From assembly GCA_037200045.1 (NCBI GenBank), contig JBBCHM010000001.1, positions 2,232,001 through 2,296,000 of the forward strand: a stretch of 64,000 bases of DNA, in the 5' to 3' direction. A program made the translations under genes and the position numbers. The DNA comes from Rhizomicrobium sp. (lineage in GTDB: Bacteria; Pseudomonadota; Alphaproteobacteria; Micropepsales; Micropepsaceae). Below, one piece after another: positions 3,252 through 3,410 of this stretch (position 1 is its first letter; every line of letters starts with the position of its first letter). The notes beneath the pieces are model-generated. The model ran no database searches. It was not told the origin of the DNA and worked only from the letters and a program-made list of their open reading frames with translations.

Positions 3252-3410
3252 TCGCCTGTATGCGGGCTCGCCGCCACGGCGACGGCCCTTCTGACTGTCC
3301 GGACAAACTCCTACGATGCCGCCGTGCGCAAACCCGCGTCTCGAACCGATCCGAAGGATCGTTCCGCCACCCAGCGCGCTACGGCAGCACCGGCAAGCTT
3401 AACAAGCCCG
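3252..3410 (-). ncRNA. IS110 bridge RNA with readable target- and donor-binding loops
   Basis: On the minus strand, upstream of the transposase, four guide-like segments occur in the canonical order. CTGGGTGGC (3374-3366) equals the left target plus first core base. GCGGG (3337-3333) is complementary to the core and right target CCCGC. ACAGTCA (3298-3292) equals the right-end donor flank just before the core. CATACAGG (3262-3255) is the reverse complement of the core plus left-end donor CCTGTATG. A perfect hairpin (CGATCC/GGATCG, 3347-3361) separates the target guides, and a GC-rich hairpin (about 3267-3289) separates the donor guides. This matches the two-loop architecture of IS621-type bridge RNAs. 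The exact 5' and 3' ends are estimates. Confidence 0.8.

What the first reader, a model, noticed from the sequence alone, without database searches (positions are those of the whole stretch)
3252..3410. IS110 bridge RNA whose four guide segments can be read directly
Read on the minus strand, the 187-base non-coding left end holds, in order, CTGGGTGGC (left target), GCGGG (complement of core plus right target), ACAGTCA (left donor, identical to the bases just before the right-end core) and CATACAGG (complement of core plus right donor). Hairpins separate each pair. This is the arrangement published for IS110/IS621 bridge RNAs, but the guides and flanks here are decoded only from this sequence. 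The matches to both the interrupted target and the element's own ends make chance unlikely.
Basis: partly seen in the sequence, partly recalled or inferred. Interest (0 to 1): 0.85.

Follow-up and report, generated by a model that had tools for sequence, protein, structure and literature searches.

The report
Bridge RNA of an IS110 element
A small jumping gene here carries the template for a guide RNA whose two loops spell out, base for base, both the repeat it jumps into and its own ends; comparison with 14 related elements confirms this is a genuine but already known kind of RNA-guided transposon.

Summary
Window 2280-3426 (minus strand) is an 1147-bp IS110-group element flanked by CC cores. 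Five near-identical copies in the genome all sit at the same base and orientation of a REP-like repeat; CTGGGTGGCCCGC occurs 134 times (reversed control 0). Across 15 distinct related elements the guides match their own insertion sites far better than swapped sites (0 of 200,000 permutations), and the two 'handshake' bases known from the IS621 structure pair with donor position 7 (14/15) and target position 7 (15/15, three pair types). A covariance model from three orthologues finds the RNA in distant relatives. This is a known mechanism, not a new one. The mildly new part: the element belongs to a clade with a CC core instead of IS621's CT, a contiguous 7-8-nt right donor guide, and Q or D where IS621 has the core-reading N84. 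No transcript or recombination was tested.

The parts
2280..3426 (-). IS110-group insertion sequence, 1147 bp between the flanking CC cores
   Evidence: five copies in G000 share exactly this stretch and diverge outside it
2291..3241 (-). DEDD recombinase (transposase), 316 aa
   Evidence: PF01548 1e-20, PF02371 2.1e-17; PDB ISCro4 6.7e-36, IS621 8.4e-31; D11/E60/D102/D105/S241 of IS621 all conserved
3250..3413 (-). predicted bridge RNA
   Evidence: covariance model span in the window (by construction) and the same model finds distant relatives; fold z -3.72 for 3242-3428; 5' end inferred from the junction promoter
3366..3374 (-). left target guide CTGGGTGGC
   Evidence: identical to left target plus first core base at 3436-3428
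3333..3337 (-). right target guide GCGGG; next base U (3332) is the handshake base pairing with donor A7
   Evidence: complement of core CC + CGC
3292..3298 (-). left donor guide ACAGTCA
   Evidence: identical to right end 2286-2280
3255..3262 (-). right donor guide CATACAGG, contiguous 8 nt; next base C (3254) is the handshake base pairing with target G7
   Evidence: complement of core CC + TGTATG at the left end
3427..3428 (-). left core CC
   Evidence: register fixed by homologous donor ends CAGTC[AG]-C[CT]-TGTA in related elements
2278..2279 (-). right core CC
3429..3440 (-). left target half of the interrupted REP-like repeat (TCACCTGGGTGG)
   Evidence: same 12 bases at all five copies
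2258..2277 (-). right target half of the REP-like repeat (CGCATGCGCGGGCCATGACA)
   Evidence: same position in all five copies; joined flanks restore an intact repeat
2293..2298 (-). -35-like TTGACT in the right end, proposed half of a promoter formed only in the circle
   Evidence: 17 nt from TATGTG across the RE-CC-LE junction; TTGAC at the same place in L026 and L027
3419..3424 (-). weak -10-like TATGTG in the left end, other half of the junction promoter
   Evidence: only 3 of 6 consensus bases
3495..3533 (+). inverted partner REP-like copy next to the target
   Evidence: CTGGGTGGCCCGC at 3503 +

Best explanation
The feature is the bridge RNA gene of an IS110-group transposon. Inferred cycle: the element excises as a circle whose RE-CC-LE junction assembles a sigma-70-like promoter (TTGACT-17-TATGTG); this transcribes a roughly 165-nt RNA from the left end. 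The RNA's first loop pairs with both strands of a genomic REP-like repeat (LTG with the left bottom strand, RTG with the right top strand). Its second loop pairs in the same way with the element's own joined ends. The DEDD/serine recombinase exchanges strands at the shared CC core, helped by one handshake base in each loop. Shown here: anatomy, guide-site matches, their covariation across elements, the fold, catalytic residues, five same-site insertions. Not shown: transcription, RNA-protein binding, recombination.
For: Five near-identical copies (0-2 SNPs) at five loci in exactly one position and orientation of TCACCTGGGTGG-CC-CGCA..CGCGGGCCATGACA. Target 13-mer 134 times in the genome, reversed control 0. 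Cognate versus swapped guide-target match over 15 distinct elements: 197 against 127.8 +/- 7.5, 0 of 200,000 permutations; own target ranks first for 10 of 15. Handshake pairs 14/15 and 15/15, with C:G, A:T and G:C types. 5'SL-TBL-DBL architecture in 14 of 15, against 6 of 500 shuffles for the window RNA, with energy -75.8 against a shuffle mean of -51.7. TBL outer stem: 14 or more neighbouring pairs kept in all three close orthologues, one as T-G/G-C/A-T. Three-sequence covariance model finds the RNA upstream of tnp in distant relatives, down to E 8e-11. Recombinase catalytic residues conserved. Geometry as in IS621 (PMC11208160, PMC11208158).
Against: No RNA data. The -10 box is weak (3/6) and the consensus promoter scan of the integrated form finds nothing. 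The right target guide is only 5 nt. L048, L050, L052, L054 and L055 do not rank their own target first, partly because several share CCCT-type targets. The guide segments of the relatives were partly placed by eye for the handshake and fold tests. Ends of relatives were found with a pattern that itself required TTGA[CT], so -35 conservation is only independent where seen by direct reading (L026, L027). Rfam gave no bridge RNA match at its gathering scores.
Confidence: 0.95

Rival explanations
1. The left-end matches are leftovers: the element carries a captured piece of the REP-like repeat (or of its own end) by accident, and target choice is made by the protein alone.
For: In one element alone a 9-base copy of the flank inside the left end could be a capture; GCGGG by itself is uninformative.
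Against: L026 and L027 have different targets (TGGGTCG-CC-CGGACA; TGGATGG-CC-GG) and their left ends carry exactly those changed bases at the homologous loop positions, while the surrounding stem is conserved. Permutation test 0 of 200,000. Handshake pairs covary.
Confidence: 0.02
2. The left-end RNA is mainly a regulator of transposase expression (like the small RNAs reported for ISPpu9) rather than the target guide.
For: Structured RNA directly upstream of tnp; regulatory sRNAs were reported for the IS110-family element ISPpu9 (PMC8450116, abstract).
Against: A regulatory role does not predict matches to the insertion site that change from element to element; both roles could coexist.
Confidence: 0.03

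Closest known systems
IS621 bridge RNA and recombinase (IS110 group; PMC11208160, PMC11208158)
   Same: Left-end RNA with 5' stem-loop, target loop then donor loop; guide order LTG-RTG-LDG-RDG; handshake bases; DEDD + serine catalytic residues; junction promoter arrangement; insertion into REP repeats.
   Different: Core CC instead of CT; right donor guide contiguous 8 nt (IS621's is discontiguous); IS621 N84, which reads the G opposite core base 8, is Q; RTG 5 nt instead of 4; protein only distantly similar (phmmer E 8e-31).
seekRNA of IS110-type elements such as ISEc21 (PMC11187229)
   Same: Non-coding region upstream of tnp gives a structured RNA matching both target strands.
   Different: Different element and target; IS1111-type seekRNAs lie downstream with the reverse order of target matches.
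ISPpu9/ISPpu10, ISPa11, ISRm22 and other REP-targeting insertion sequences (PMC1525189)
   Same: Specific insertion into a host's multicopy REP repeat.
   Different: Other repeat sequences and hosts; guides were unknown when these were described.

Membership tests
IS110 group of the IS110 family | DEDD RuvC-like domain (PF01548) plus Transposase_20 (PF02371) with catalytic serine | tested here: met
   residues equivalent to D11, E60, D102, D105, S241 of IS621 all present
IS110 group of the IS110 family | Long non-coding left end upstream of tnp, short right end, no long terminal inverted repeats | tested here: met
   about 185 nt left of tnp, 11 nt right of the stop; boundaries from five copies
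IS621-type bridge RNA | Target loop and donor loop, each with left guide equal to the top strand and right guide complementary to it, around the core | tested here: met
IS621-type bridge RNA | Guide-target covariation between elements | tested here: met
   0 of 200,000 permutations
IS621-type bridge RNA | Handshake bases pairing with position 7 of the non-cognate DNA | tested here: met
   14/15 and 15/15
IS621-type bridge RNA | CT core dinucleotide (usual, not obligatory) | tested here: not met
   core is CC here and in L026, L027, L044, L045; CT in the other relatives. Treated as a variant, not a disqualification: the paper reports AT, GT and TT cores working at lower efficiency
IS621-type bridge RNA | Sigma-70-like promoter formed at the RE-LE junction | tested here: inconclusive
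   TTGACT-17-TATGTG read at the junction; -10 weak
IS621-type bridge RNA | RNA is made, binds the recombinase and directs recombination | not testable with these tools
   needs RNA-seq and plasmid assay
IS1111 group | Long subterminal inverted repeats and bridge RNA in the right end | tested here: not met
   right end is 11 nt beyond the stop; RNA lies in the left end

The most novel reading that the evidence does not exclude
A natural clade of IS110 recombinases uses a CC core in place of CT, with a coordinated change of protein (IS621 N84 to Q or D, next to the core) and of the donor loop (contiguous 7-8-nt right donor guide); it would show how core specificity can be altered, a limit on bridge-recombinase programming.
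Probability: 0.45. Interest if true: 0.55.

Novelty: new member of a known kind. Interest (0 to 1): 0.38.

Why it matters
It is an independent confirmation, from sequence alone, of the published bridge-RNA geometry, down to the handshake bases, in a lineage far from IS621. It also offers a natural CC-core clade as a starting point for recombinases not restricted to CT cores; the T at core position 9 is described as almost invariant in IS621 and related orthologues. It shows again that such elements can aim at a host's own multicopy intergenic repeat, presumably a harmless landing place.

Tried and rejected
Rfam search: only two tRNAs in the window, no bridge RNA match. RNAalifold on a 14-sequence MAFFT alignment recovered only the inner donor-loop stem, because the guide loops and inner hairpins are not alignable by sequence; replaced by per-sequence folding with guides unpaired and a three-sequence covariance model. 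The scan of named genome contigs gave only two relatives. Test whether the close orthologues also aim at multicopy repeats: TGGGTCGCCCGG 5 in G057 (control 0), TGGATGGCCGGG 4 in G007 (control 1), so not clearly enriched; the L044 target 17-mer occurs 6 times in its host and in none of six other genomes. So REP targeting is strong for the window's element, plausible for some relatives, unproven for L026 and L027. The N84-to-Q/D association with CC cores rests on one clade (support 0.94), hence one event, and other columns split the same way.

Full report
Anatomy. On the minus strand, an open reading frame at 3241-2291 codes a 316-aa recombinase with PF01548 and PF02371. Its only solved relatives found are ISCro4 (E 6.7e-36) and IS621 (8.4e-31). 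The residues equivalent to IS621 D11, E60, D102, D105 and S241 are all present. The genome holds five copies with 0-2 SNPs over 1147 bp. The sequence shared by the copies begins at 3426 (TGTATGTG) and ends at 2280 (ACAGTCA), each junction carrying CC between element and flank. Joining the flanks gives an intact TCACCTGGGTGG-CC-CGCA..CGCGGGCCATGACA in all five.

Target. All five copies lie at the same base and in the same orientation of a palindromic, REP-like repeat. The 13-mer spanning the insertion point occurs 134 times in 4.73 Mb, and its reversed control not once. Four of the five copies have a clear inverted partner repeat within about 100 bp on the left.

Guides. Read along the left end: LTG CTGGGTGGC (3374-3366) equals the left target plus the first core base. 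RTG GCGGG (3337-3333) is complementary to core plus right target. LDG ACAGTCA (3298-3292) equals the right end. RDG CATACAGG (3262-3255) is complementary to core plus left end. In 50,000 dinucleotide shuffles the four occur 67, 34,855, 142 and 32 times and never all together, so RTG taken alone carries no weight.

Covariation. Related elements were collected from the same family and from other genomes of the class; the two named orthologues are Alphaproteobacteria MAGs. L026 (75% identical recombinase) sits in AATGGGTCG-CC-CGGACA and carries TGGGTCGC and TGTCCGGG in the target loop. L027 (69%) sits in GCTGGATGG-CC-GGGG and carries TGGATGGC and CCGG. Elements in G412 and G330, ten and five copies, sit in other palindromic repeats with matching guides. 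Over 15 distinct elements the summed guide-target match is 197 against 127.8 +/- 7.5 for permuted targets, with none of 200,000 permutations reaching it. The elements are related, so the permutations are not a strict probability, but relatedness should raise the swapped scores rather than the cognate ones.

Handshake bases. In the IS621 structure, the base after the core-pairing part of each right guide pairs with position 7 of the other DNA (PMC11208158). Here the target-loop base pairs with donor position 7 in 14 of 15 (the exception is U opposite G). The donor-loop base pairs with target position 7 in 15 of 15, as C:G (3), A:T (2) and G:C (10). This supports the register independently of the core itself.

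Fold. The left end folds with z -3.72. With guides held unpaired, a 5' stem-loop, a target loop with inner hairpin and a donor loop with inner hairpin appear in 14 of 15 elements by the set criterion (L055 lacks a 5' stem-loop in that fold), against 6 of 500 shuffles of the window RNA. A covariance model from three orthologues finds the left-end RNA of distant elements at the right place, with E from 8.4e-11 (L044) and 2.1e-10 (L045) to 0.011 (L020). In the window its top match is 3250-3413 (171 bits), which is by construction.

Promoter. Across the circle junction the sequence reads TTGACT-17-TATGTG, half in each end. TTGAC at the same distance is seen in L026, and in L027, where it lies well beyond the stop codon and so is not there for coding reasons. 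The -10 is weak. This step is inferred by analogy with IS621, where RNA from such a promoter was sequenced (PMC11208160).

What differs. Five elements (window, L026, L027, L044, L045) have a CC core and a contiguous 7-8-nt RDG. The others have a CT core and, like IS621, an interrupted RDG. In IS621, T at core position 9 is described as almost invariant and N84 reads the G opposite core base 8 (PMC11208158). N84 is Q or D in all five CC elements and N in all CT elements examined. The CC elements form one clade, so this is a correlation from one event and only a lead.

Verdict. The element is a new member of a known kind. RNA production and recombination remain untested.

Noticed in passing
L046 (G579), left end: A related element whose left end has lost the target loop (LDG 88 bases from the end instead of about 130); its first catalytic Asp is Glu and an in-frame TGA was counted: apparently a dead relic.
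   Followed up: partly
G000 whole genome: 134 exact copies of the REP-like 13-mer, often in inverted pairs about 80 bp apart, but no REP-associated tyrosine transposase (PF01797) found in this genome, so what spreads the repeat is unknown.
   Followed up: partly
recombinase residue 78 (window 3008-3010, minus strand): The position equivalent to IS621 N84 is Q in the window clade, D in L044/L045 and N in all CT-core elements.
   Followed up: partly
window 31614-31706 (+): Weak match to the bridge RNA model (15.9 bits, E 0.005), probably chance since no recombinase hit lies there.
   Followed up: no
L045, L059, L062, L065 (G542): Four copies of a CC-core element with a 10-nt left target guide GAAGCAATCC, all inserted after CGAAGCAAT at CC.
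   Followed up: no
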